Below are positions 1,219-9,469 of a DNA stretch of 10,189 bases, piece after piece. Made by a program: the position numbers and the translations under genes. Below the pieces are notes generated by a model. The model worked only from the letters and a program-made list of their open reading frames with translations. It was not told the origin of the DNA and searched no databases. The DNA is taken from the NCBI GenBank assembly GCA_026002265.1, contig BOBG01000073.1:1-10189 (forward strand), written 5' to 3'. Each line of letters begins with the position of its first letter. Position 1 is the first letter of the stretch. The stretch is from Spirochaetia bacterium. Lineage in GTDB: Bacteria; Spirochaetota; Spirochaetia; Treponematales; Breznakiellaceae.

Positions 1219-3729
1219 ATGAAAAAGTTTCTATACGGATTGGTTATTGGAACAGTGATTTTGTATGCCGCTTGTGAACACGCGGGCCTTGAAACGGATA
1301 GTTCGGCAGTGCAAACTCCTCCGGGAATGGGCATGGTTCGAGTGAGCTTTTCAGATGGCGCTGCGCGGACAATTTACCCTGACAAGACCTTTGATCATTA
1401 TGTGTATACCTTTACCAAGGTTGGTGAATCAACAGGGCAAGTAAAGACTCCGGCTGCAAATGGTGTATTTACCTTGGAAACCGGAAGCTGGAACCTTTCG
1501 GTACAGGCCTACGCTAACGCATCTAATACTTCTCTTGCGGCTATGGGTAGCACAACTACTGCCTTTACGGTCAGCCAAAATACCGTGACCGATAACATTG
1601 TGATAACGTTAAGCCCGGCGGTGAGTACTGGGGAGGGAACGCTAAACTATAGCATCACGTATCCTGCCGCCGGTGTTATTCAAACCCTTAGCTTTGTACA
1701 AGTCGGCGGAGGGACTTCAACCAATTTACAAACAGACGCAAGCATTTCCTCTACCGGCGGTCTTAGTACCCTTACAGGAACAAAGACCGCGATAAGTGCC
1801 GGGTACTACCTGATTAGGGTAATACTGAAGGACGGCTCAGAGCTGACTGCGGGTAAAAGTGAAGTAGTACACATCTATAATAATTTGACCACCACGCTAA
1901 ACTTTAACTTTAGCGCCAGTGAGTTCACCGCGGCTATTAATGCTAATGCTGCAACACCAGTCATCACCTCAGTGCCTGTAGGCACGAGTTACATTCAACA
2001 TGCCTCCGCATTCCCCATTGATGTTGGGGCCTCTGTAAATGATGGAGGAACTCTTAGTTTTCAGTGGTATAGTAATGCGTCCAATAGCACCACTGGCGGC
2101 ACTGCTATTTACGGTGAAACCGGCGCAAGCTACACACCTTCTACTGCGGCAGTGGGAACTGTCTATTACTACGTGGTGCTTAGCAATACCAATAACACTG
2201 TGAACGGAAACACAACGGCTACGGTAACGAGCTCTGTCGCAGCGATTACAGTAATAACACCAGAAGATGTAATAGTTATTACAGTGGCTAATATAGATCA
2301 GATGAAATCACTTGTTGCAGCAGCGGCGGCCGCAGGCGGTGGAACGAGCAAAACTAATCCCATCGTAGTCGCAATAACAATCTCAGATGCAAGCTTGCTT
2401 TCGGGAACCAATAGCGAGGGTACCGATCTTCTGCACAAGCTTTTTGACGCGATTCCCAGCAGTAAATATGTTAGCTACGACCTGAGCGGTAGTACCTTCA
2501 CTAGTTTTGGAGATATAACGTATGATACTGCATATGCCAGAACGAATAAAAGCTATCTTGCGTCCATTAGCCTACCCGAAACACTGACCACTATCGGCTC
2601 CAATACGTTCTCTAACTGTAGTGGGCTGACAGATATTACCATTCCTAATAGTGTGACCACTATCGGCGGAATGGCGTTCCGGAGCTGTAGTGGGCTGAGA
2701 TCAATTAGCATCGGCAACAGTGTGATCTCTATCGGCTCCTATGCGTTCTCTTACTGTAGCGGGCTGACATCGGTTAGCATCGGCAACAGTGTGATCTCTA
2801 TCGGCTCCTATGCGTTCTCTTACTGTAGCGGGCTGACATCGGTTAGCATCGGCAACAGTGTTACTTCTATCGGCGAGGCTGCGTTCCGGAGCTGTAGCGA
2901 GCTGACATCGGTTAGCATCGGCAACCGTGTGACCACTATCGGCGATCTTGCGTTCTCTTACTGTAGTGGGCTGACAGAGATTACCATTCCTAATAGTGTG
3001 ACCACTATCGGCGGAATGGCGTTCCGGAGCTGTAGTGGGCTGAGATCAATTAGCATTCCCAACAGTGTGACCTCTATCGACTACTCTACGTTCTCTGGCT
3101 GTAGCAGGCTGGCATCGGTTAGCATTCCCAACAGTGTGATCTCTATCGGCGACAATGCGTTCTCTGGCTGTAGCAGGCTGGCATCGGTTAGCATTCCCAA
3201 CAGTGTGATCTCTATCGGCGACAATGCGTTCTCTGGCTGTAGCAGTCTAACATCAATTGAAGTAAATACAAGCAATCCATTCTATAAATCTATTGAGGGA
3301 GTTTTATTTAATCAAGTAGGTACGGAATTAGTAGCATATCCAAACGGGAAAGGGGCTACTACATACACAATCCCCAACAGTGTGACCACTATCGGCAACT
3401 CTGCGTTCTCTGACTGTAGCAGGCTGGCATCGGTTAGCATTCCCAACAGTGTGGAGTCTATCGGCTCCTCTGCGTTCTGGGGCTGTAGTGGGTTGACAGA
3501 GATTACCATCCCCAACAGTGTGACCACTATCGGCAACTCTGCGTTCAGGGGCTGTTACAGCCTGACATCGGTATATGTACAGCGGGACACCGAGCCACTG
3601 ACGACACTGGGGATTTATGCGTTTGACGATACGCATTCTTCCCTACAAATCTATGTACCCGCAAGCAAAGTGATAGACTATCGGACGGCGTGGACTAGCT
3701 ACGCGGACGAGATAGAGGCAGCGCCCTAA
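1219..3729 (+). CDS. BspA-like leucine-rich-repeat lipoprotein (LRR_5 type)
   Basis: An 836-residue predicted surface lipoprotein. The signal peptide MKKFLYGLVIGTVILYAA ends at a lipobox with Cys19. Residues ~35-240 form one or two all-beta domains of no recognised family. Residues ~245-348 look Ig-like (LSFQWYSNAS, YYYVVLSNTN). A spacer precedes an array of 13 BspA/TpLRR repeats of 23 residues (about 449-783), with the pattern IPNSVTTIGxxAFxxCSGLT. The array is interrupted at ~679-714 by the non-repeat island typical of these proteins, and closes with a C-terminal cap (YVPASKVIDYRTAW). BspA family proteins in oral and gut bacteria are implicated in adhesion to host proteins and to other bacteria, so that role is inferred here. 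The start is fixed by AGGAG at 1208-1212, 6 nt before ATG. The terminator at 3838 closes the operon. Confidence 0.9.
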   Translation: MKKFLYGLVIGTVILYAACEHAGLETDSSAVQTPPGMGMVRVSFSDGAARTIYPDKTFDHYVYTFTKVGESTGQVKTPAANGVFTLETGSWNLSVQAYANASNTSLAAMGSTTTAFTVSQNTVTDNIVITLSPAVSTGEGTLNYSITYPAAGVIQTLSFVQVGGGTSTNLQTDASISSTGGLSTLTGTKTAISAGYYLIRVILKDGSELTAGKSEVVHIYNNLTTTLNFNFSASEFTAAINANAATPVITSVPVGTSYIQHASAFPIDVGASVNDGGTLSFQWYSNASNSTTGGTAIYGETGASYTPSTAAVGTVYYYVVLSNTNNTVNGNTTATVTSSVAAITVITPEDVIVITVANIDQMKSLVAAAAAAGGGTSKTNPIVVAITISDASLLSGTNSEGTDLLHKLFDAIPSSKYVSYDLSGSTFTSFGDITYDTAYARTNKSYLASISLPETLTTIGSNTFSNCSGLTDITIPNSVTTIGGMAFRSCSGLRSISIGNSVISIGSYAFSYCSGLTSVSIGNSVISIGSYAFSYCSGLTSVSIGNSVTSIGEAAFRSCSELTSVSIGNRVTTIGDLAFSYCSGLTEITIPNSVTTIGGMAFRSCSGLRSISIPNSVTSIDYSTFSGCSRLASVSIPNSVISIGDNAFSGCSRLASVSIPNSVISIGDNAFSGCSSLTSIEVNTSNPFYKSIEGVLFNQVGTELVAYPNGKGATTYTIPNSVTTIGNSAFSDCSRLASVSIPNSVESIGSSAFWGCSGLTEITIPNSVTTIGNSAFRGCYSLTSVYVQRDTEPLTTLGIYAFDDTHSSLQIYVPASKVIDYRTAWTSYADEIEAAP
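2563..3567 (+). repeat. 69-bp repeat array encoding thirteen 23-residue LRR units
   Basis: Ten contiguous 69-bp units run from 2563 to 3252. A 108-bp non-repeat island covers 3253-3360, and three more units run from 3361 to 3567. Several units are almost identical at the DNA level. Units 3 and 4 (2701 and 2770) form a near-perfect tandem pair. Units 9 and 10 (3115 and 3184) form another. Unit 2 (2632) recurs as unit 7 (2977), shifted by exactly five units (345 bp). This implies recent expansion by slippage or recombination. Confidence 0.95.
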
Positions 3730-3837: not shown

Positions 3838-3863
3838 AGCCTCCGGGAAACCGGGGGCTTTTT
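3838..3863 (+). terminator. rho-independent terminator of the lipoprotein operon
   Basis: A nine-base-pair stem (AGCCTCCGG against CCGGGGGCT, one T-G wobble) is closed by a GAAA tetraloop and followed by a T run. It is well placed to end transcription of the two lipoprotein genes. Its core TCCGGGAAACCGGGGGC is repeated exactly in the next terminator at 4391. Confidence 0.9.
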
Positions 3864-3864
3864 A

Positions 3865-3905
3865 TTGCTATAAAGATGTAGATCCGGTATAGTGAAAAGA
3901 GGAGG
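3865..3905 (+). promoter_or_regulatory. promoter and ribosome-binding site of the aspartic protease gene
   Basis: TTGCTA (3865-3870) and TATAGT (3888-3893) are separated by exactly 17 bp. A start site near 3900 would fall at the edge of the ribosome-binding site GGAGG (3901-3905), which lies 7 nt before the ATG at 3913. The predicted leader is therefore only about 13 nt. Confidence 0.55.
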
Positions 3906-3912
3906 TTGCAAA

Positions 3913-4326
3913 ATGGGAACAACGTATGACGAGATTACATTGAAGAATACAGGTGATGTAGAAATGAAAGCTCGTGGGCTTATCAAGGAGTCGGAAGTCC
4001 GGCAAACAACGATACAGGTTGTGGCGGATACTGGTGCTGATACGCTTATCATCAACGAAGCGGTCCGAGCAGCCCTGGGACTGCGGGTTGTGGGCCTAGC
4101 GGAGGCGTGGCTGGCGGACGGTGCTAATCCGGACTGTAAAGTGACTGAGCCGGTAGATGTACACTGGAAGGAGCGTTCCATGACATGCCGTCCATGGTTA
4201 ATAGCAAATGCGCCGGAAGTGCTTCTTGGAGCAATCCCGTTGGAAGATATGGATATAACAGTGGACTGCAAACGGCAGCAACTAGTTGGCAAACACGGCG
4301 ATAAACAGGTACGGTACATCCGGTAA
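3913..4326 (+). CDS. clan AA (retropepsin-like) aspartic protease
   Basis: A small soluble protein of 137 residues with the hallmarks of a single-domain retroviral-type aspartic protease. The active-site triad is in VVADTGADTLIINE (Asp-Thr-Gly at 39-41). A second conserved hydrophobic-Gly motif, LLGAIPLEDMDITVD, begins at about 104. These enzymes act as homodimers, each chain giving one catalytic Asp. The substrate is unknown. I chose ATG 3913 over an in-frame GTG at 3892 because GGAGG at 3901-3905 lies correctly before the ATG and inside the longer version. No signal peptide is seen, so it is probably cytoplasmic. It is flanked by its own promoter and terminators, so it is probably monocistronic. 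Small bacterial clan AA proteases are often found in accessory regions, but no partner gene is evident here. Confidence 0.8.
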   Translation: MGTTYDEITLKNTGDVEMKARGLIKESEVRQTTIQVVADTGADTLIINEAVRAALGLRVVGLAEAWLADGANPDCKVTEPVDVHWKERSMTCRPWLIANAPEVLLGAIPLEDMDITVDCKRQQLVGKHGDKQVRYIR

Positions 4327-4384: not shown

Positions 4385-4417
4385 GTCGTCTCCGGGAAAC
4401 CGGGGGCGGCTTTTTTT
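4385..4417 (+). terminator. rho-independent terminator after the aspartic protease
   Basis: An eleven-pair stem, GTCGTCTCCGG against CCGGGGGCGGC with three T-G wobbles, has a GAAA loop and a seven-T tail (4411-4417). The loop and upper stem match the terminator at 3838 base for base. Confidence 0.9.
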
Positions 4418-4520: not shown

Positions 4521-4730
4521 AATGCGGGGGATTCTCCGGCAGTCATGGAGGATTCGCTCACAAATGCGGGGGACTCTCTGGAACTCCGGGAGAGTTCACC
4601 CACAAGTGTGGGGGATTCTCCGGCAGTCATGGAAGATTCATTCAAAAGTGTGTGGGACTCTCTAGAAGTCCTAGAGGATTCATTCATGAGTGCGAGGGAC
4701 TCCCCGGCAGTCATGGAGAATTCACCGTCA
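4521..4730. repeat. five 42-bp tandem repeats with an 84-bp alternating pattern
   Basis: Five units start at 4521, 4563, 4605, 4647 and 4689. Units 1, 3 and 5 share CCGGCAGTCATGGA. Units 2 and 4 instead carry CTCTCTGGAACTCC or CTCTCTAGAAGTCC, so the true period is an alternating 84 bp. Because 42 is a multiple of three, several frames stay open. A forward frame 4428-4739 gives 14-residue repeats such as NAGDSPAVMEDSLT. A second forward frame gives KCGGFSGSHG-like repeats and runs on into the DUF554 frame. A reverse frame 4714-4454 gives SSMTAGESPA repeats. None has a convincing ribosome-binding site, so coding status is undecided. Unit 4 holds a clean hairpin, CTCTAG-AAGTC-CTAGAG. Confidence 0.85.
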
Positions 4731-4773
4731 GTCCGGTAAGTACCGATAAGAAAAGCATATACCTTTTGAATTA

Positions 4774-4876: not shown

Positions 4877-5578
4877 ATGTTAGGAGTCATAGTAAACGCG
4901 GGAGCTATCATCATCTGTTCGCTTCTCGGCTGTTTTGCAGTAAGAGGCATTCCGGAACGTTTTGAGGAAACGATAAAAAAAGCCATTGGTCTCTCGATTG
5001 TTTATGTAGGAATCCGGGGTGCATTAGAGAATCAGCATATACTCCTTTTGATCATGAGCATGGTCGGCGGTGCAATCATCGGAGAATTGATCAACATCGA
5101 CAGACTCATGAACCGGTTCGGACTATGGGCTGAAAAGAAATTGGGTATGTCCGGCGGAACCTTTGCCAAAGGTTTTGTGGCCGCATCTATTCTTTTTTGT
5201 TCTGGATCCATGGCCATTGTAGGTTCCATGCAATCCGGACTCAGCGGCAACCATGAAACACTTTTTGCAAAATCAATTCTTGACGGTGCAATCTCTCTCG
5301 TTTTTGCCGCATCAATGGGAATCGGAGTTGCATGTTCAGCCATACCGGTATTTTTATATCAAGGTACAATCGTAGTAGTATCATGGATATTACGTGATTT
5401 TTTATCACCGGATACTATCCGTGAAATGGGTGCTGTCGGGAATCTCCTCGTGGCAGCAATTGGTTTTAATTTTTTAGGTACCAAAGAAATCCGTGTAGCA
5501 AATTTAATTCCGGCCATCTTTATCCCATGGATTTATTTAACAATTACCGGCATTGTTTTATCAACGCCCTACCATTAG
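4877..5578 (+). CDS. DUF554 family integral membrane protein (YdfK-like)
   Basis: A hydrophobic protein of 233 residues, close to the usual family length of about 230. It matches the DUF554/YdfK pattern along its whole length: an N-terminal GVIVNAGAIIICSLLG membrane segment, SMVGGAIIGE (61-70), then FAKGFVAASILFCSGSMAIV (96-115), KSILDGAISLVFAASMGIGV (132-151) and VFLYQG (158-163). About six or seven membrane helices are expected. The family's function is not established; transport is often guessed. The reading frame extends upstream through the 42-bp repeats to 4499, but ATG 4877 is chosen because GAGG precedes it, the homologous core starts there and the longer version would add 126 non-family residues. 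A dedicated TTGACA promoter lies just upstream, and no partner gene overlaps. Confidence 0.9.
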   Translation: MLGVIVNAGAIIICSLLGCFAVRGIPERFEETIKKAIGLSIVYVGIRGALENQHILLLIMSMVGGAIIGELINIDRLMNRFGLWAEKKLGMSGGTFAKGFVAASILFCSGSMAIVGSMQSGLSGNHETLFAKSILDGAISLVFAASMGIGVACSAIPVFLYQGTIVVVSWILRDFLSPDTIREMGAVGNLLVAAIGFNFLGTKEIRVANLIPAIFIPWIYLTITGIVLSTPYH

Positions 5579-5723
5579 TTATCCAAACTGATTGCTGTTT
5601 CACTCCCTTTTTGGTTCCGGAATATAAAGAGTGGAATCCGGAAACTTTATCTTCCCATCTATAGCAGTTGAATTTTTTTCTATAATTATGCTTTACTGAA
5701 GGTGGCCTAAAGCCCAATCCTAG
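5579..5723. other. intergenic segment with inverted repeats, no gene seen
   Basis: Between DUF554 and the decayed zinc-ribbon copy there is no supported gene. TTCCGGA pairs with TCCGGAA about 15 nt later, nested with ATAAAG and CTTTAT arms. This could be a weak terminator for DUF554, but it lacks a T run next to it. A perfect TATAAT at 5681-5686 has no matching -35 box. Confidence 0.4.
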
Positions 5724-5853
5724 TTGGTGAATCAGTCGAACCATAGGTTTGAATGTTGCGAATATTATAGTACGGGCGGCTCGCCCAAAGTCCGCCGTTG
5801 GCGGAAAGACTGCGGATATACAAGCATCGGCAGATAAAAGAAGCAGTAAGTAA
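5724..5853 (+). pseudogene. decayed, shortened copy of the small zinc-ribbon gene at 8799
   Basis: Starting with TTGGTG, as the intact gene does, a frame reads MVNQSNHRFECCEYYS (TTG 5724 onward), which parallels the intact HRVYRCPKCGYYKS. Around 5770-5787 an extra GGGCG-GCT-CGCCC hairpin sequence intervenes. The homologous frame then shifts and reads KSAVGGKTADIQA (from 5788), stopping at TAA 5851-5853. The intact gene reads KSAVGGKTVDIQA. The first zinc ligands are missing and the frame is broken, so no functional protein is expected. The similarity is strong from 5788 on and weak before that. Confidence 0.5.
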
Positions 5854-5868
5854 GTTTTATAAGGCAGA
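5788..5868 (+). repeat. copy A of a duplicated leader cassette, ending at the atpC ribosome site
   Basis: Three blocks match 8925-9081 in the same order. Block 1, 5788-5825, matches 8925-8962 at 37 of 38 bases and includes the hairpin TCCGCC-GTT-GGCGGA. Block 2, 5822-5853, matches 8994-9025 at 30 of 32. Block 3, AAGTTTTATAAGGCAGA at 5852-5868, matches 9065-9081 exactly. This copy lacks about 35 and 41 nt relative to the other. The first missing segment is bounded by AAGC repeats, as expected for a deletion. AAGG in block 3 serves as the atpC ribosome site. Confidence 0.9.
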
Positions 5869-5872
5869 AAAA

Positions 5873-6289
5873 ATGACTTATCCTTTTCAAGTTCATACTC
5901 CGCACCGGCCCTTTTATGCGGATAAAGTTGAGGTCATCATTTTGACGCTCATTGATGGAGAAATTGCTGTTTATGCGAATCATTCCTTTTTTATTGCACC
6001 GGTTCAAACTGGTATTTTAAAAATAAAGGATAAAACCGGAACATGGCGGACCGCATTTATTTCAGAAGGTATGCTGGAAGTAAAAGGTCACAACACGATT
6101 CTCTTGGTTGATGCTGCGGAATGGCCCGAGGAAATTGATCTTGAGAGGAGTGAAGCAGCAAAGAAAAGTGCTGAAGCACGTATCAAGGATTCTTCTCTCC
6201 GGTTTGAAACCGATCTGGCCCGCGCCGCGTTGAAACGTGCAGAATTCCGGATAAAAGTTAAAAAAATGGAGAACACAAGTAGATATTGA
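5873..6289 (+). CDS. atpC: F-type ATP synthase epsilon subunit
   Basis: A protein of 138 residues, the normal length for the epsilon subunit of the F1 part of ATP synthase, a peripheral cytoplasmic protein that couples rotation and inhibits ATP hydrolysis. The N-terminal beta-sandwich domain (about 1-84) shows family features: PFYADKVEVIILTLIDGEIA, a following His-rich turn, FISEGMLEVKGHN and ILLVDAAEWPEEID. Residues ~88-135 form the charged two-helix C-terminal domain (ERSEAAKKSAEARI, LARAALKRAEFR). ATG 5873 is chosen over an in-frame TTG at 5798 because the family begins there and AAGG lies 8 nt upstream. The upstream extension is translated cassette sequence. No other ATP synthase gene is in the window, which is unusual because atpC normally follows atpD. 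It converges on the tRNA operon. Confidence 0.85.
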   Translation: MTYPFQVHTPHRPFYADKVEVIILTLIDGEIAVYANHSFFIAPVQTGILKIKDKTGTWRTAFISEGMLEVKGHNTILLVDAAEWPEEIDLERSEAAKKSAEARIKDSSLRFETDLARAALKRAEFRIKVKKMENTSRY

Positions 6290-6326
6290 TATTTGGTACA
6301 CTGCAACTGAGTGGGTTTGTGGCAGC

Positions 6327-6355
6327 AAAAAAAATAGCGTCCACTTGGACGCTAT
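6327..6355 (-). terminator. rho-independent terminator of the tRNA operon
   Basis: On the reverse strand a near-perfect palindrome (ATAGCGTCCA and TGGACGCTAT around a 2-nt centre, 6334-6355) is followed by a run of T (6333-6327). It sits directly after tRNA-Gly. On the forward strand there is no T run, so it would not obviously terminate atpC. Confidence 0.9.
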
Positions 6356-6357
6356 CG

Positions 6358-6429
6358 AGCGGGAAACGGGAGTCGGACCCGCGACATCGACCTTGGCAAG
6401 GTCGCGCTCTACCACTGAGCTATTCCCGC
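6358..6429 (-). tRNA. tRNA-Gly (anticodon GCC)
   Basis: The reverse complement folds as a cloverleaf with acceptor GCGGGAA/TTCCCGC, anticodon stem CGACC/GGTCG, and loop TTGCCAA giving GCC. The discriminator base is T, and CCA is not encoded. It is the last gene of the four-tRNA operon. Confidence 0.95.
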
Positions 6430-6438
6430 ATAAAAACA

Positions 6439-6511
6439 TGAGCCGCCCGAGGATCGAACTCAGGACCCGCAGATTAAGAGTCTGCTGCTCTACCAGCTGA
6501 GCTAGCGGCCC
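6439..6511 (-). tRNA. tRNA-Lys (anticodon CTT)
   Basis: Reverse-strand cloverleaf with acceptor GGGCCGC/GCGGCTC (one G-T pair), anticodon arm GCAGA-CTCTTAA-TCTGC giving CTT, and discriminator A. CCA is not encoded. Third gene of the operon. Confidence 0.95.
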
Positions 6512-6533
6512 GCTACATAAAAAGGACCGCTTC

Positions 6534-6607
6534 TGCGTCCGACAGGACTCGAACCTGCGGCCTACGGATTCGAAGTCCGTCGCTCTATCCAGCTGAGCTA
6601 CGAACGC
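6534..6607 (-). tRNA. tRNA-Arg (anticodon TCG)
   Basis: Reverse-strand cloverleaf with acceptor GCGTTCG/CGGACGC, anticodon arm ACGGA-CTTCGAA-TCCGT giving TCG, and discriminator A. CCA is not encoded. Second gene of the operon. Confidence 0.95.
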
Positions 6608-6616
6608 ACAAAAATG

Positions 6617-6689
6617 GGTGGATGACGGGGTTTGAACCCGCGACGGCCAGATCCACAATCTGGAACTCTACCGCTGAGCTACATCCACC
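6617..6689 (-). tRNA. tRNA-His (anticodon GTG)
   Basis: Reverse-strand cloverleaf with acceptor GTGGATG/CATCCAC and anticodon arm CCAGA-TTGTGGA-TCTGG giving GTG. The extra G at position -1 opposite C73, the identity mark of tRNA-His, is encoded. Full CCA is not. It is the first gene of the operon, about 11 nt after the -10 box. Confidence 0.95.
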
Positions 6690-6700
6690 ATACACAGATG

Positions 6701-6729
6701 ACAATAGCACAGCCGGAATTTTTTGTCAA
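6701..6729 (-). promoter_or_regulatory. promoter of the tRNA operon
   Basis: On the reverse strand TTGACA (6729-6724) and TATTGT (6706-6701) are separated by exactly 17 bp. The predicted start lies a few nt before the tRNA-His 5' end. This is the strongest promoter match in the window. Confidence 0.85.
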
Positions 6730-6732
6730 GCC

Positions 6733-6808
6733 GGTAGCTACCATTTCACTTTGTCAACCGGCTATAACGTACAATTTTAGTTTACTGATACCAGAATTTT
6801 TTGTCAAG
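6733..6808 (-). promoter_or_regulatory. extra TTGACA boxes and a palindrome upstream of the tRNA promoter
   Basis: Two further reverse-strand TTGACA boxes lie at 6757-6752 and 6807-6802. The outer one has TAAACT 17 bp downstream, so it could be a second promoter. GAATTTTTTGTCAAG occurs at both 6716-6730 and 6794-6808. Between the boxes lies the perfect palindrome GGTAGCTACC (6733-6742), and AGCCGG (6729-6734) pairs with CCGGCT (6758-6763). These may be upstream control sites for the tRNA operon. Confidence 0.4.
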
Positions 6809-6890
6809 TATTTTTTGAAAAAACAGCTCCTACTTTTTTCCATACCTATTCTACGGCATCTGGAAAACCGGAAAAAATGTCTAAAAGTGA

Positions 6891-6919
6891 TTGACAAATT
6901 TTTCTATCATTCATAGGAT
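6891..6919 (+). promoter_or_regulatory. promoter of the aminotransferase gene
   Basis: TTGACA (6891-6896) and TAGGAT (6914-6919) are separated by exactly 17 bp. A start near 6926 gives a leader of about 30 nt containing GGAGG at 6945-6949. It is divergent from the tRNA promoter. Confidence 0.75.
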
Positions 6920-6955
6920 ATTTTTGGTTTGGTATTATTCCGGTGGAGGCTTGCT

Positions 6956-8128
6956 GTGCCAGTTGCAACTAGTATTAAGGAATCGCTTAGGTCTTCATCT
7001 CTGATCCGGAAAATGTTTGAAGAGGGCAATCGGCTCAAAAAATTGTACGGTGCGGAGAATGTGTTTGATTTTTCTTTGGGGAATCCTGATGTAGAACCGC
7101 CGCCGGCCTTTCATGCGGTTTTTTTGAAATGTGCTCAGGAGGATCCAAAGGGTTCTCATAGCTATATGCAAAACGCCGGGTATCCGGCTGTCCGTGAGGC
7201 TTTAGCGTGCAAAGCCGGTAGAGAGCACAACGTTACGCTGGATGCCGATCATATTATAATGTCAGTCGGGGCGGCTGGCGGACTCAATGTGGTTTTTAAA
7301 TCTATTTTGAATCCGGGTGATGAAATCATCGTTTCCCGGCCCTATTTTGTGGAATACCGGTCCTATGTGGAAAACCATGGCGGAACACTCGTTCCGGTTG
7401 ATACATTGCCGGATTTTAACCTTGATGTTCAAGCCATTCAGTCCCGCCTTTCTCCAAAAACAGCCGGGGTTTTGATCAATTCTCCGCACAACCCAACCGG
7501 TAGAGTCTATCCGGCTGCTACACTTGCCGCACTTGCCGATTGTCTGTGCAACCACGGAAAACAGTGCGGACGCTATCCGTATCTTATTGCAGATGAACCG
7601 TACCGGGAGATTGTGTACAATGGAGTTGTACCGCCGGTTCTTGCTGTGTACGATGAATCGATTGTGATAAATTCTTATTCCAAAAATCTGTCGCTTCCGG
7701 GTGAACGGATCGGGTATATTGCGGTGTCGCCGACAATTGCTGACAAAGAAACTGTGGTAAATGCGCTCATTCATTCGACCCGAGTACTCGGTTTTACCAA
7801 CGCGCCGGCACTCATGCAGAGGATTGTCGCAGAATTAACCGAAGCCCGAGTTGATACTAGCGTTTATGCGCGCCGGCTCGCCGCGTTCAAAAAGGTGTTA
7901 GATGCGGCCGGAATCGAATATGCACAGCCGGATGGTGCCTTTTATCTTTTCTGTAAAGCGCCGGATGCTGACGATAAAGCTTTTGTGGAACGGTTAAAGC
8001 AGAATCTGATCTTGGGAGTGCCCGGAACCGGTTTTGGAAGTCCTGGGTGGGTCAGGTTTGCCTACTGTGTTGACGAAACAATTATCGAACATTCTAAAAA
8101 TGCGTTTTTAAAAACTATGGGAAAATGA
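6956..8128 (+). CDS. PLP-dependent aminotransferase, class I/II (aspartate aminotransferase fold)
   Basis: A cytoplasmic enzyme of 390 residues that should transfer an amino group between an amino acid and a 2-oxo acid using pyridoxal phosphate. Family residues are all present: FDFSLGNPD near the N terminus, GYPAVREAL, NSPHNPTG (Asn179), IADEPYR (Asp213, Tyr216), the cofactor-binding lysine in SYSKNLSLPGERIGY (Lys243, Arg251) and the substrate-carboxylate Arg367 in GWVRFAY. The substrate cannot be read from sequence; aspartate, alanine or aromatic amino acids are all possible. GTG 6956 is chosen because GGAGG lies 6 nt before it. A TTG at 6929 would add nine residues and include the ribosome site in the coding region. 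Its promoter has a perfect -35 box. CCGG occurs about two dozen times by hand count, far above expectation. Confidence 0.9.
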   Translation: MPVATSIKESLRSSSLIRKMFEEGNRLKKLYGAENVFDFSLGNPDVEPPPAFHAVFLKCAQEDPKGSHSYMQNAGYPAVREALACKAGREHNVTLDADHIIMSVGAAGGLNVVFKSILNPGDEIIVSRPYFVEYRSYVENHGGTLVPVDTLPDFNLDVQAIQSRLSPKTAGVLINSPHNPTGRVYPAATLAALADCLCNHGKQCGRYPYLIADEPYREIVYNGVVPPVLAVYDESIVINSYSKNLSLPGERIGYIAVSPTIADKETVVNALIHSTRVLGFTNAPALMQRIVAELTEARVDTSVYARRLAAFKKVLDAAGIEYAQPDGAFYLFCKAPDADDKAFVERLKQNLILGVPGTGFGSPGWVRFAYCVDETIIEHSKNAFLKTMGK

Positions 8129-8135
8129 TTAACAT

Positions 8136-8164
8136 TTGACAAAAATGCAACAAACACATACACT
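8136..8164 (+). promoter_or_regulatory. promoter of the STAS gene, predicting a leaderless transcript
   Basis: TTGACA (8136-8141) and TACACT (8159-8164) are exactly 17 bp apart. The expected start, about 7 nt after the -10 box, coincides with the GTG at 8171. No Shine-Dalgarno sequence lies before that GTG. Confidence 0.65.
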
Positions 8165-8170
8165 TTCCAT

Positions 8171-8725
8171 GTGACTACAAATGATGCATTGGTGCCGGAA
8201 TTTGATGATAACTATGATGAAAATCTTCACATCGAATTACGGGTCATCCGGGAAGTTGAACATGGGCTGTACATTTCACTTTCCGGTTATATTGATACTG
8301 ATAACTCTGAACTCTTGCAAAAACGCCTCACTAAAATTGTTAAAGCCGGCTATGTCCGGCTCATTGTGCAGTGTGCACAGCTTCAATCCGTTTCTTCAAC
8401 CGGCGTAAGTGCATTTGCTCAACTCCTTAAATCGATTAAAACCCGGAAAGGCCAGTTGGTTTTTGTTAATGTACAGCAAAAGGTCCGGCAGGTATTTCAA
8501 CTTTTAGGATTTTCTACTACCTTTCAGTTTGAGGATAGTTTTGACCGGGCAATTCATGTGATCAACGCCGGTACCGATAGACAGGAACCGGCCCTATTTC
8601 CGGTGATCATCATCTGTCCCCGGTGTGTGCAAAAAGTGCGGATCCATAAACCCGGAGACTTCCGGTGCTCATGGTGTAAAGCAGCGTTGACTCTTGAGCC
8701 GACCGGACGGGTACGGCTCTGTTGA
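8171..8725 (+). CDS. STAS-domain protein with C-terminal zinc ribbon
   Basis: A protein of 184 residues. Residues ~20-130 match the STAS fold of anti-sigma-factor antagonists (SpoIIAA type): GLYISLSGYIDTDNSELLQK, then the phospho-acceptor loop LQSVSSTGVSAFAQLL (Ser75 or Ser76), and LVFVNVQQKVRQVFQLLGF. In that family a kinase phosphorylates the serine to switch partner binding. Here no kinase or sigma factor is adjacent. The tail carries a four-cysteine zinc ribbon, CPRC at 149-152 and CSWC at 166-169, so the protein is a STAS-zinc-ribbon fusion. The GTG start lies at the predicted transcription start and has no ribosome site, so leaderless translation is likely. The gene begins 42 bp after the aminotransferase stop but has its own promoter. 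A hairpin with a T run overlaps its end. Confidence 0.8.
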   Translation: MTTNDALVPEFDDNYDENLHIELRVIREVEHGLYISLSGYIDTDNSELLQKRLTKIVKAGYVRLIVQCAQLQSVSSTGVSAFAQLLKSIKTRKGQLVFVNVQQKVRQVFQLLGFSTTFQFEDSFDRAIHVINAGTDRQEPALFPVIIICPRCVQKVRIHKPGDFRCSWCKAALTLEPTGRVRLC

Positions 8726-8734
8726 ATTTTTTTT
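8696..8734 (+). terminator. probable terminator overlapping the end of the STAS gene
   Basis: GAGCCG (8696-8701) pairs with CGGCTC (8714-8719), with inner ACC/GGT pairs. Eight T follow at 8727-8734, seven bases after the stem. The stem lies in the last codons. The gap before the T run makes it weaker than the other terminators in the window. Confidence 0.5.
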
Positions 8735-8735
8735 G

Positions 8736-8744
8736 AGGAGGTGA
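8736..8744 (+). promoter_or_regulatory. strong ribosome-binding site with no ordinary start codon after it
   Basis: AGGAGGTGA (8736-8744) is a near-perfect Shine-Dalgarno sequence. The nearest downstream codons in the frame of the zinc-ribbon gene are ATA 8745 and ATT 8754, with no ATG, GTG or TTG at usable distance in that frame. A TTG at 8755 in another frame opens a 13-codon peptide (ending TAA 8794-8796) with a long 13-nt spacing. The site may be relic, may serve a leader peptide, or may support a rare ATT/ATA start. Confidence 0.5.
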
Positions 8745-8798
8745 ATATTAAGTATTGATTTTTTATTCAAGTATATCAATTTACCAAAAAAGTTAAGT

Positions 8799-9053
8799 TT
8801 GGTGGAAAATAGTTGTAGCAATGACGGCTGCAATCATGCTATAACCGAGAGTTTCCCTCACATATCAAGCGGCAGTGCGAAGATGATACATCGGGTTTAT
8901 CGGTGTCCAAAATGCGGGTACTATAAGTCCGCCGTTGGCGGAAAGACTGTGGATATACAAGCGCTAATAGTTATTAGTGAAACTAGTATAGAAAAGCATC
9001 GGCAGATGAAGGAAGCAGTAAGTAAACTTCAAACCATTACTCTGCAACAGTGA
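8799..9053 (+). CDS. small four-cysteine zinc-ribbon protein, function unknown
   Basis: A predicted protein of 84 residues from a TTG at 8799 (a GTG follows at 8802). Four cysteines in pairs, Cys6 and Cys11 then Cys36 and Cys39 (YRCPKCGYY), suggest one zinc-binding site. No family is recognised. The frame stays open upstream to about 8745, just after the strong AGGAGG, so translation could begin earlier at ATT 8754 or ATA 8745 and add 15-18 residues. No good ribosome site precedes TTG 8799. Its stop TGA overlaps a GTG (9050) that opens the next frame, so it is probably co-transcribed with the YbjN-like and PspA genes. Its 3' half is duplicated upstream of atpC in broken form. It could be a nucleic-acid-binding adaptor or a fragment of a mobile-element protein; neither is shown. 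Confidence 0.5.
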   Translation: MVENSCSNDGCNHAITESFPHISSGSAKMIHRVYRCPKCGYYKSAVGGKTVDIQALIVISETSIEKHRQMKEAVSKLQTITLQQ

Positions 9054-9081
9054 GTAGGTTTGTTAAGTTTTATAAGGCAGA
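8925..9081 (+). repeat. copy B of the duplicated leader cassette, ending at the YbjN-like gene's ribosome site
   Basis: This longer copy contains the three blocks found upstream of atpC (8925-8962, 8994-9025, 9065-9081) plus two intervening segments of about 35 and 41 nt. It runs from inside the zinc-ribbon gene to AAGG at 9074-9077. The last block ends 5 nt before ATG 9086, exactly as the other copy ends 5 nt before ATG 5873. Confidence 0.9.
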
Positions 9082-9085
9082 CTAT

Positions 9086-9469
9086 ATGGCTGATAATAAG
9101 ATCGAGCAGTATCTCATAGATCTTACTTTGAGTTACCGGAAAGATGAAGGTCACGATGTGTGGCTTGTTGATGACGAGGAACATGAGATTCGTGATGTGG
9201 CTATTGCTTTTGTGAGTTCCCTTGTCATTGTCCGGACAGTTGTTATGAAAGCTCCGGCCGAAAACCGGTTGGAATTATTTACGAAGCTGCTTGAGCTGAA
9301 CGCCACCGATGTTGTACATGGTGCGTATGCGTTGGAAGGCGATCAAATTGTACTGATTGACACGCTCGAATATGAAACGATGGATTGTTCAGAATTTAGG
9401 GCAACATTAGATGCGTTCAGTTTGGCACTCGCCCAGCATTATCCGGTACTTTCAAAGTACCGGCAGTAG
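9086..9469 (+). CDS. YbjN-like protein (type III secretion chaperone-like fold)
   Basis: A protein of 127 residues with no signal peptide. Its pattern, with an N-terminal helix (IEQYLIDLTLSYR), alternating strands (VAIAFVSSLVIVRTVV), then LLELNATDVVHGAYALEGD, IVLIDTLEYETMD and a final helix (FRATLDAFSLALAQHYPVL), fits the YbjN and type III secretion chaperone-like fold. Such proteins are often found next to PspA-family genes and are thought to be partners or regulators; that role is inferred here. ATG 9086 is chosen because AAGG lies 8 nt upstream. An in-frame GTG at 9050 overlaps the previous stop and would add 12 residues of cassette sequence. PspA begins 15 bp after its stop. An alternative placement is the DUF2170/YjfI group, which also neighbours a PspA paralogue. 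Confidence 0.65.
   Translation: MADNKIEQYLIDLTLSYRKDEGHDVWLVDDEEHEIRDVAIAFVSSLVIVRTVVMKAPAENRLELFTKLLELNATDVVHGAYALEGDQIVLIDTLEYETMDCSEFRATLDAFSLALAQHYPVLSKYRQ

What the first reader, a model, noticed from the sequence alone, without database searches (positions are those of the whole stretch)
5788..9081. The same three-block cassette precedes two unrelated genes, each copy ending 5 nt before a start codon
Blocks of 38, 32 and 17 nt occur in the same order at 5788-5868 and 8925-9081. They match 37/38, 30/32 and 17/17. The last block carries the ribosome site and stops exactly 5 nt before ATG of atpC and of the YbjN-like gene, whose coding sequences are unrelated. Copy A lacks two internal segments, one bounded by AAGC repeats. 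The cassette may be a mobile or recombining leader that brings a 5' end to new genes, or an ancient duplication. It also contains the hairpin TCCGCC-GTT-GGCGGA.
Basis: seen in the sequence. Interest (0 to 1): 0.75.

Follow-up and report, generated by a model that had tools for sequence, protein, structure and literature searches.

The report
Fossil transposon ends at ribosome-binding sites
The repeated stretch in front of two genes is the worn-down right end of an IS607-like jumping element that seems to have landed on the ribosome-binding site of a gene and brought a replacement site with it, so that the gene could still be translated.

Summary
The repeat is real: 37/38, 30/32 and 17/17 identities, each copy ending 5 nt before ATG. 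It is one of about eight copies in this genome, with more in related Treponema genomes. It is the right end of an IS607-like tnpB element: the tail of tnpB, the guide-RNA (reRNA) scaffold and a terminal TTTTATAAGGCAG. A covariance model built only from these leaders matches 12 of 17 tnpB loci from plasmids, a phage and a viral contig, best E 2.5e-11. Of 30 copies with the tail motif, 19 have an ATG 3-9 nt downstream opening at least 100 codons, against 2.0% of random positions and 0 of 24 other tnpB ends in the genus. The left flank is GGAG in 3 of 5 copies with a comparable left end. Relatives show sites without the element. AGGAG is a published target-adjacent motif of IS607 TnpB (PMC11061315) and is a Shine-Dalgarno (SD) core. 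So 'mobile leader' is partly right: a transposon end, probably inserted at the SD and replacing it. Targeting versus selective survival, and translation from the tail, remain untested.

The parts
8171..8725 (+). STAS-domain gene, upstream neighbour of copy B
   Evidence: Pfam PF01740 1.8e-19; adjacent to ybjN without a cassette in 5 of 5 fetched relatives
8732..8740 (+). Left flank TTTGAGGAG: SD-like, taken as the original SD and target of the insertion of copy B
   Evidence: Position; same layout as C8 (TTTGGAG) and L132 (CGAGGAG)
8741..9080 (+). Copy B: internally deleted IS607-like element, left end to right end
   Evidence: 77% identity over its length with the copy on C8; R1 match 8905-9083, 142.2 bits (this copy was in the model's training set)
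8753..8780 (+). Left-end segment, promoter-like (TTGATT...TATATC), shared with C8; resembles TTGACT...TTATAT in L132/L135
   Evidence: Read by eye
8799..8924 (+). Decayed zinc-ribbon end of tnpB (CSNDGCNH...YRCPKCGYY)
   Evidence: PF07282 only at E 0.052, below cut-off; stronger in sister copies
8928..8942 (+). Hairpin TCCGCC-GTT-GGCGGA of the reRNA scaffold, copy B
   Evidence: Pairs with changes on both sides; position
8946..9019 (+). RAGATH-18-like core: basal helix 8946-8950 with 9015-9019 around a variable stem and GTGAAAC
   Evidence: Best Rfam match RF03064 at 8946-9021, 15.5 bits, far under the gathering score 44.9, E 2.5
9027..9062 (+). 3' hairpin of the scaffold (missing in copy A)
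   Evidence: Helices 4 and 5
9064..9080 (+). Right-end tail TAAGTTTTATAAGGCAG, proposed replacement SD of the YbjN-like gene
   Evidence: Same tail in copy A, 17/17; tail in sister copies
9086..9469 (+). YbjN/CesT-like gene
   Evidence: PF22550 9.2e-26, PF10722 9e-9
5768..5867 (+). Copy A: right end only, with inner stem and 3' hairpin deleted; left end not recognised
   Evidence: R1 match 5768-5870, 93.8 bits (in the training set); hairpin 1 at 5774-5786, hairpin 2 at 5791-5805, basal helix 5809-5813 with 5843-5847, tail 5851-5867
5873..6289 (+). atpC (ATP synthase epsilon)
   Evidence: PF02823 1.3e-17

Best explanation
The cassette is the right end of a decayed IS607-like transposon: the last codons of tnpB, the overlapping reRNA (omega-RNA) scaffold and the terminal tail. 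The living element recognised a GGAG/AGGAG core, which is also the heart of a Shine-Dalgarno sequence, and inserted directly 3' of it in the sense direction. Its tail TTTTATAAGGCAG then stood a few nt before the start codon and acted as the new SD, so that even essential genes tolerated it. The tail keeps AAGG for the ribosome but reads GGCAG and not AGGAG, which could spare the element from its own TnpB. Shown: the repeat family, tnpB remnants, reRNA homology, position at start codons, cassette-free orthologous sites, GGAG left flanks in 3 of 5 copies. Inferred: that the motif directed insertion rather than selection alone, that the tail is the working SD, and that GGCAG is TAM avoidance.
For: TnpB ends upstream of many copies; L135 frame with PF07282 9.4e-17 and PF01385 9.5e-16 and guided_TnpB 173.8 bits over its cut-off of 100; R1 matches 12 of 17 tnpB loci, E 2.5e-11 to 0.0059; covariation; 19 of 30 tail copies with ATG at 3-9 nt against 2.0% (7896 of 391020 positions) and 0 of 24 IS605-type ends; looser count 38 of 53 against 15.5%; left flanks; trkHA site without the element in G160 (AAGGGAG-ACTTTTGTG) and G027 (AAGGGG-ACTTTTGTATG) against the 597-nt insertion in G161; STAS-ybjN without it in 5 of 5 fetched genomes. 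IS607 TnpB TAM AGGAG in 18 of 22 strains, GAGGG in 4 of 22, beside the left end (PMC11061315, passages); IS607 target (G)GG (PMC6188088, passages).
Against: No full IS607 TnpA was found: 0 of 195 family genomes over the cut-off; the MerR-like start is below its cut-off (E 0.0089). NCBIfam scores the L135 TnpB slightly higher with the IS200 model (175.8 bits) than with the IS607 one (147.2), both under their cut-offs. Rfam RAGATH-18 is far below threshold and absent in L021, L135 and whole-locus scans. Window copy B and C8 fold alone only weakly (z -1.56, -1.51). One left flank is GGAA and one degenerate. The occupied trkHA site has 14 extra nt on its left, so the junction is not base-exact. 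G006 has TTTAAGGCAGG before ybjN with no element. Only 2 of 16 fetched plasmid/phage tnpB loci have an annotated start within 10 nt of the right end (by eye).
Confidence: 0.75

Rival explanations
1. Survivor bias: the element inserted with little preference beyond G-rich sites, and only copies that left a usable SD before a gene were kept by selection.
For: All copies read are relics; IS607 is reported to need only (G)GG; most fetched plasmid copies are not at start codons; some tails have drifted to AGGAGG-like SDs (L017, L122, L126, L027), so the tail may be under selection.
Against: The flank GGAG at the left edge in 3 of 5 copies and the trkHA sites with an SD at the junction show that an SD was already there; IS605-type relics in the same genus show no such bias, 0 of 24.
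Confidence: 0.3
2. A cis-regulatory leader RNA (riboswitch-like) that controls a regulon.
For: Structured RNA with compensatory changes before many genes.
Against: Absent before orthologues of ybjN (5 of 5) and atpC (3 of 3); downstream genes have no common theme; tnpB ends lie upstream; the same RNA ends tnpB genes elsewhere; copy A lost two helices.
Confidence: 0.04
3. An IS200/IS605 element rather than IS607.
For: R1 also matches the RNA cores of IS605-type tnpB copies (L100, L101); the IS200 TnpB model scores slightly higher on L135.
Against: Right end GGCAG/AGCAG, not GTAGCTCAC, GTAGCTGAC or AGTTGAA as in the IS605-type copies; MerR-like start in L135 and L132; RNA matches loci with annotated IS607 transposases (L280, L283, L289, L294); AGGAG is an IS607 TAM.
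Confidence: 0.12
4. An old duplication of one 5' region, without transposition.
For: Two copies 3.1 kb apart in one contig.
Against: Many copies on other contigs and in other genera; tnpB remnants; cassette-free orthologous sites.
Confidence: 0.02

Closest known systems
IS607 elements whose TnpB uses RAGATH-18-derived reRNA (e.g. ISFba1; PMC11061315, one section and passages read)
   Same: tnpB end overlapping the reRNA scaffold, same order of hairpins, basal helix CCTGTGGA/GAAGCAGGAA, AGGAG beside the left end
   Different: Copies here are relics; right end reads like an SD (AAGGCAG) where the plasmid IS607 copies mostly end in ACGG; copies crowd at start codons; Spirochaetota are not among the seven phyla listed in the section read
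Rfam RF03064 RAGATH-18
   Same: Best Rfam match in copy B and in L112, aligning the basal helix
   Different: 15.5 and 22.0 bits against a gathering score of 44.9; not found in L021 and L135
Non-autonomous IS derivatives (MITE-like)
   Same: Copy B and C8 keep both ends with the middle deleted, about 340-400 nt
   Different: No terminal inverted repeats were noticed; the repeat search listed none pairing the two ends; insertions read here are all in the sense direction of the next gene where one follows

Membership tests
IS607 family | TnpA: serine recombinase with N-terminal MerR-like domain | tested here: inconclusive
   MerR-like start only, in L135 (E 0.0089, below cut-off) and by eye in L132, L130; no full TnpA in 195 family genomes
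IS607 family | TnpB | tested here: met
   L135: PF07282, PF01385 over cut-offs, guided_TnpB over cut-off. In the window only a remnant, E 0.052
IS607 family | reRNA scaffold at the end of tnpB | tested here: met
   R1 matches 12 of 17 tnpB loci, 4 of the 7 with an annotated IS607 transposase
IS607 family | GG at the ends and in the target | tested here: inconclusive
   GG in the left flank in 4 of 5 copies (GGAG 3, GGAA 1); right junction GCAG followed by G in only part of the copies
IS607 family | No target duplication | tested here: inconclusive
   None visible at trkHA, but 14 extra nt on the left blur the junction
IS607 TnpB with AGGAG TAM | AGGAG next to the left end | tested here: inconclusive
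   AGGAG in copy B and L132, TGGAG in C8, AGGAA in L135, degenerate in L130
Rfam RAGATH-18 | Score over the gathering threshold of 44.9 | tested here: not met
   15.5 bits, 22.0 bits, none
IS200/IS605 family | Right end like the IS605-type copies of the same genus | tested here: not met
   GTAGCT[CG]AC or AGTTGAA there, GGCAG here
IS200/IS605 family | Y1 transposase TnpA | not tested
   No search for Y1 TnpA was made; none was seen in the frames read of L130-L135
Riboswitch or other cis-regulatory leader | Same RNA before orthologous genes in relatives | tested here: not met
   Absent before ybjN (5 of 5) and atpC (3 of 3)

The most novel reading that the evidence does not exclude
A class of IS607 transposons uses the Shine-Dalgarno sequence itself as target and TAM, and carries on its right end a replacement SD (AAGGCAG) that the ribosome reads but its own TnpB does not cut: a translation-sparing transposon able to enter essential genes, whose relics have become the permanent ribosome-binding leaders of housekeeping genes.
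Probability: 0.5. Interest if true: 0.78.

Novelty: new variant of a known kind. Interest (0 to 1): 0.6.

Why it matters
It would give a biological meaning to the published AGGAG TAM of IS607 TnpB: AGGAG is a Shine-Dalgarno core, so the guide set by such an insertion would be the start of a gene. It would show how a transposon can settle in front of essential genes without killing the host, and that the ribosome-binding sites of genes such as groES, tsf and htpG can be of transposon origin. In the held library I found no paper that says this (searches; listings seen, passages of four papers read); subscription papers are largely not held.

Tried and rejected
Rejected: a new cis-regulatory RNA (my first idea), because orthologues lack it and tnpB ends lie upstream; a promoter-leader cassette, because the conserved stretch upstream of the G002/G003/G071 copies is codons for the DRDENAAINR motif of TnpB (the motif's name is recalled); IS200/IS605, mainly by the right end, with a counter-hint; simple duplication.

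Led nowhere: Rfam at gathering score (only four tRNAs; none) and on 12 whole loci up to E 5 (none); a 30-nt pattern in genome contigs (0); strict RAGATH-18 patterns in viral contigs (0; 17 stretches, of which I read one, L265, as a real element); a full IS607 TnpA (23 of 195 genomes at E 1e-5, 0 over the cut-off); L135 TnpB in genome contigs (2 loci). One search was fetched and not used.

Dropped before counts: one search left 23 of 53 R1 matches without the tail motif out of the start-codon count (IS605-type copies, and degenerate ones some of which still precede ATG, e.g. L016 tsf, L017, L121). The 11 tail copies that fail include groES (91 aa) and ptsH (87 aa), which miss only the 100-aa limit, and GTG or TTG starts. 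The IS605-type control took 28 of the 30 loci (L153 and L167, contig ends, left out; 30 loci for the 42 matches), and 4 of the 28 had no recognised right end. Copies used to build R1 are among those counted. ybjN: 5 fetched of 8 other genomes with a match in the ybjN-pspA region.
Full report
The observation. The three blocks, their order, their identities (37/38, 30/32, 17/17) and the 5-nt gaps to the ATG of atpC and of the YbjN/CesT-like gene are as described. Copy A differs from copy B by two deletions, one between AAGC repeats and one between TAA repeats. A search of the own genome finds the same sequence on contigs C8, C33, C75 and C140 as well, then on C21 and C63. With the two window copies that makes eight. 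The further R1 matches on C143 and C91 are IS605-type tnpB copies, and the one on C77 is weak (E 0.96).

Who has it. By BLAST 3 of 58 genomes, the own one included, match, all in the window's genus. A covariance model R1, built from 11 copies, finds at E up to 1 eleven matches in the own genome, 16 in G002, 2 in G003 and 6 weak ones in G001 (best E 0.017), and at E up to 0.01 matches in 25 of 195 family genomes, 12 of 56 genera, G071 having 12. Some of these are IS605-type RNA cores and not this family. That such bins come from termite guts is recalled, not a tool result.

What it is. Upstream of many copies the DNA encodes the end of TnpB: CPDC...DRDLNAAIN in G160/G161, DRDENAAINR or its decay in G002, G003 and G071. 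The best preserved copy, L135, has an open frame with PF07282 (9.4e-17) and PF01385 (9.5e-16), preceded by a MerR-type helix-turn-helix remnant (E 0.0089, below cut-off) like the start of an IS607 TnpA (the likeness is recalled). NCBIfam's general guided_TnpB model is over its cut-off; the IS200 model scores a little above the IS607 model, both under theirs. In the window, frame 8799-9053 is a decayed zinc ribbon (E 0.052).

The RNA. The repeat is the RNA scaffold: hairpin 1, hairpin TCCGCC-GTT-GGCGGA, a basal helix xCTGT/GCAGx around an inner stem and GTGAAAC, and a 3' hairpin. Pairs change together: 89.6% of cells paired against 82.8% shuffled and 36-45% slid on a plain MAFFT alignment of 11 copies, 91.1% against 81.5% with 17 of 27 pairs changing on both sides in 30 sequences (that alignment was fitted to the model). 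Folded alone, L021 and L025 are more stable than shuffles (z -3.9, -3.0), the window copy B and C8 only weakly (z -1.6, -1.5). Rfam's nearest family in copy B and L112 is RAGATH-18, well below threshold (15.5 and 22.0 bits); it was not found in L021 or L135. [quoted passage not shown] R1 finds the same RNA at the end of tnpB in 12 of 17 plasmid, phage and viral loci, fetched because their TnpB resembles that of L265. Seven of them have an annotated IS607 transposase, and R1 matches four of those seven. This cross-match is the strongest link.

Where it sits. The tail TTTTATAAGGCAG is followed within a few nt by the start codon of groES, tsf, smpB, fliW, flgD, htpG, ptsH, hisD, maf and others; gene names are my reading of the translations. 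Of 53 R1 matches 30 carry the tail motif, and 19 of these 30 have ATG at 3-9 nt opening at least 100 codons. All positions on both strands of the same loci give 2.0% (7896 of 391020), and IS605-type tnpB ends of the same genus 0 of 24. With looser limits it is 38 of 53 against 15.5%. In five copies the left end can be compared: the flank is GGAG in C8, copy B and L132, GGAA in L135, degenerate in L130.

Sites without the element. trkH-trkA in G161 reads ...CGAGGAG, 597 nt, TTTGTGATATG; G160 reads AAGGGAG-ACTTTTGTG and G027 AAGGGG-ACTTTTGTATG. The occupied site has 14 further nt on its left that the others lack, so the junction is near the SD but not base-exact. STAS and ybjN are close neighbours without a cassette in five of five fetched relatives, and atpC follows atpD without it in three of three (atpD named by me). 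One of the five, G006, reads TTTAAGGCAGG before ybjN with no element, so such an SD can also be native, or be a trace.

Mechanism. IS607 prefers (G)GG targets (PMC6188088, passages). IS607 TnpB cuts next to AGGAG (18 of 22 strains) or GAGGG (4 of 22), and AG-rich motifs were found beside the left end (PMC11061315, passages). AGGAG is a Shine-Dalgarno core; searching that paper's main text for 'ribosom', 'Shine', 'start codon' and 'RBS' gave 0 each. The simplest account is that the element inserts just 3' of the SD in sense orientation and that its tail serves as the new SD. A right end reading GGCAG and not AGGAG would keep the occupied site from being cut by TnpB. In four relics the tail reads AGGAGG or GGAGG (L017, L122, L126, L027), which fits relaxed TAM avoidance with selection for translation, but these are few and two are weak matches. 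Targeting and survivor bias cannot be fully separated with relics. Among 16 fetched plasmid and phage tnpB loci only two, B. longum L281 (left flank GAAAGGG) and Acidiphilium L280, have an annotated start within 10 nt of the right end (right ends read by eye), so the habit is not general.

Verdict. It is a relic of a known kind of transposon with an unusual, possibly SD-directed way of living. Interest 0.6.

Noticed in passing
window 5578-5873: In the window atpC follows a different membrane-protein gene and not atpD, whereas in G001, G002 and G003 atpC directly follows atpD. Recombination between element copies could have caused this.
   Followed up: partly
window 6358-6688, minus strand: Cluster of four tRNA genes between atpC and the aminotransferase gene.
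   Followed up: no
window 2572-3638: Twelve 69-nt-spaced repeats in a long secreted leucine-rich-repeat-like protein, with two further 249-nt repeats at 410-907 in the gene before it.
   Followed up: no
window 4523-4732: 42-nt repeats, in a stretch between genes, encoding DS-rich repeats in either strand.
   Followed up: no
window 3841-3858 and 4390-4407: Identical 18-nt CTCCGGGAAACCGGGGGC followed by T runs: two terminator-like copies 549 nt apart.
   Followed up: no
window 3892-4326 and L131 1248-1670: Two similar small proteins with a DTGA motif (retropepsin-like by eye), each in a stretch with an IS607-like relic nearby.
   Followed up: no
G001: The same-genus genome without clear IS607-like relics has 23 PF07282 matches, mostly short frames with another type of right end (AGTTGAA): a different burst of tnpB relics.
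   Followed up: no
L021, upstream of the copy: Tandem AGTAAGGAGTGAAGG-type repeats just upstream of a G002 copy.
   Followed up: no
L295/L018 (contig C140) 399-540: One own-genome copy, C140, has no start codon after its tail within the limits; nothing in Rfam lies there.
   Followed up: partly
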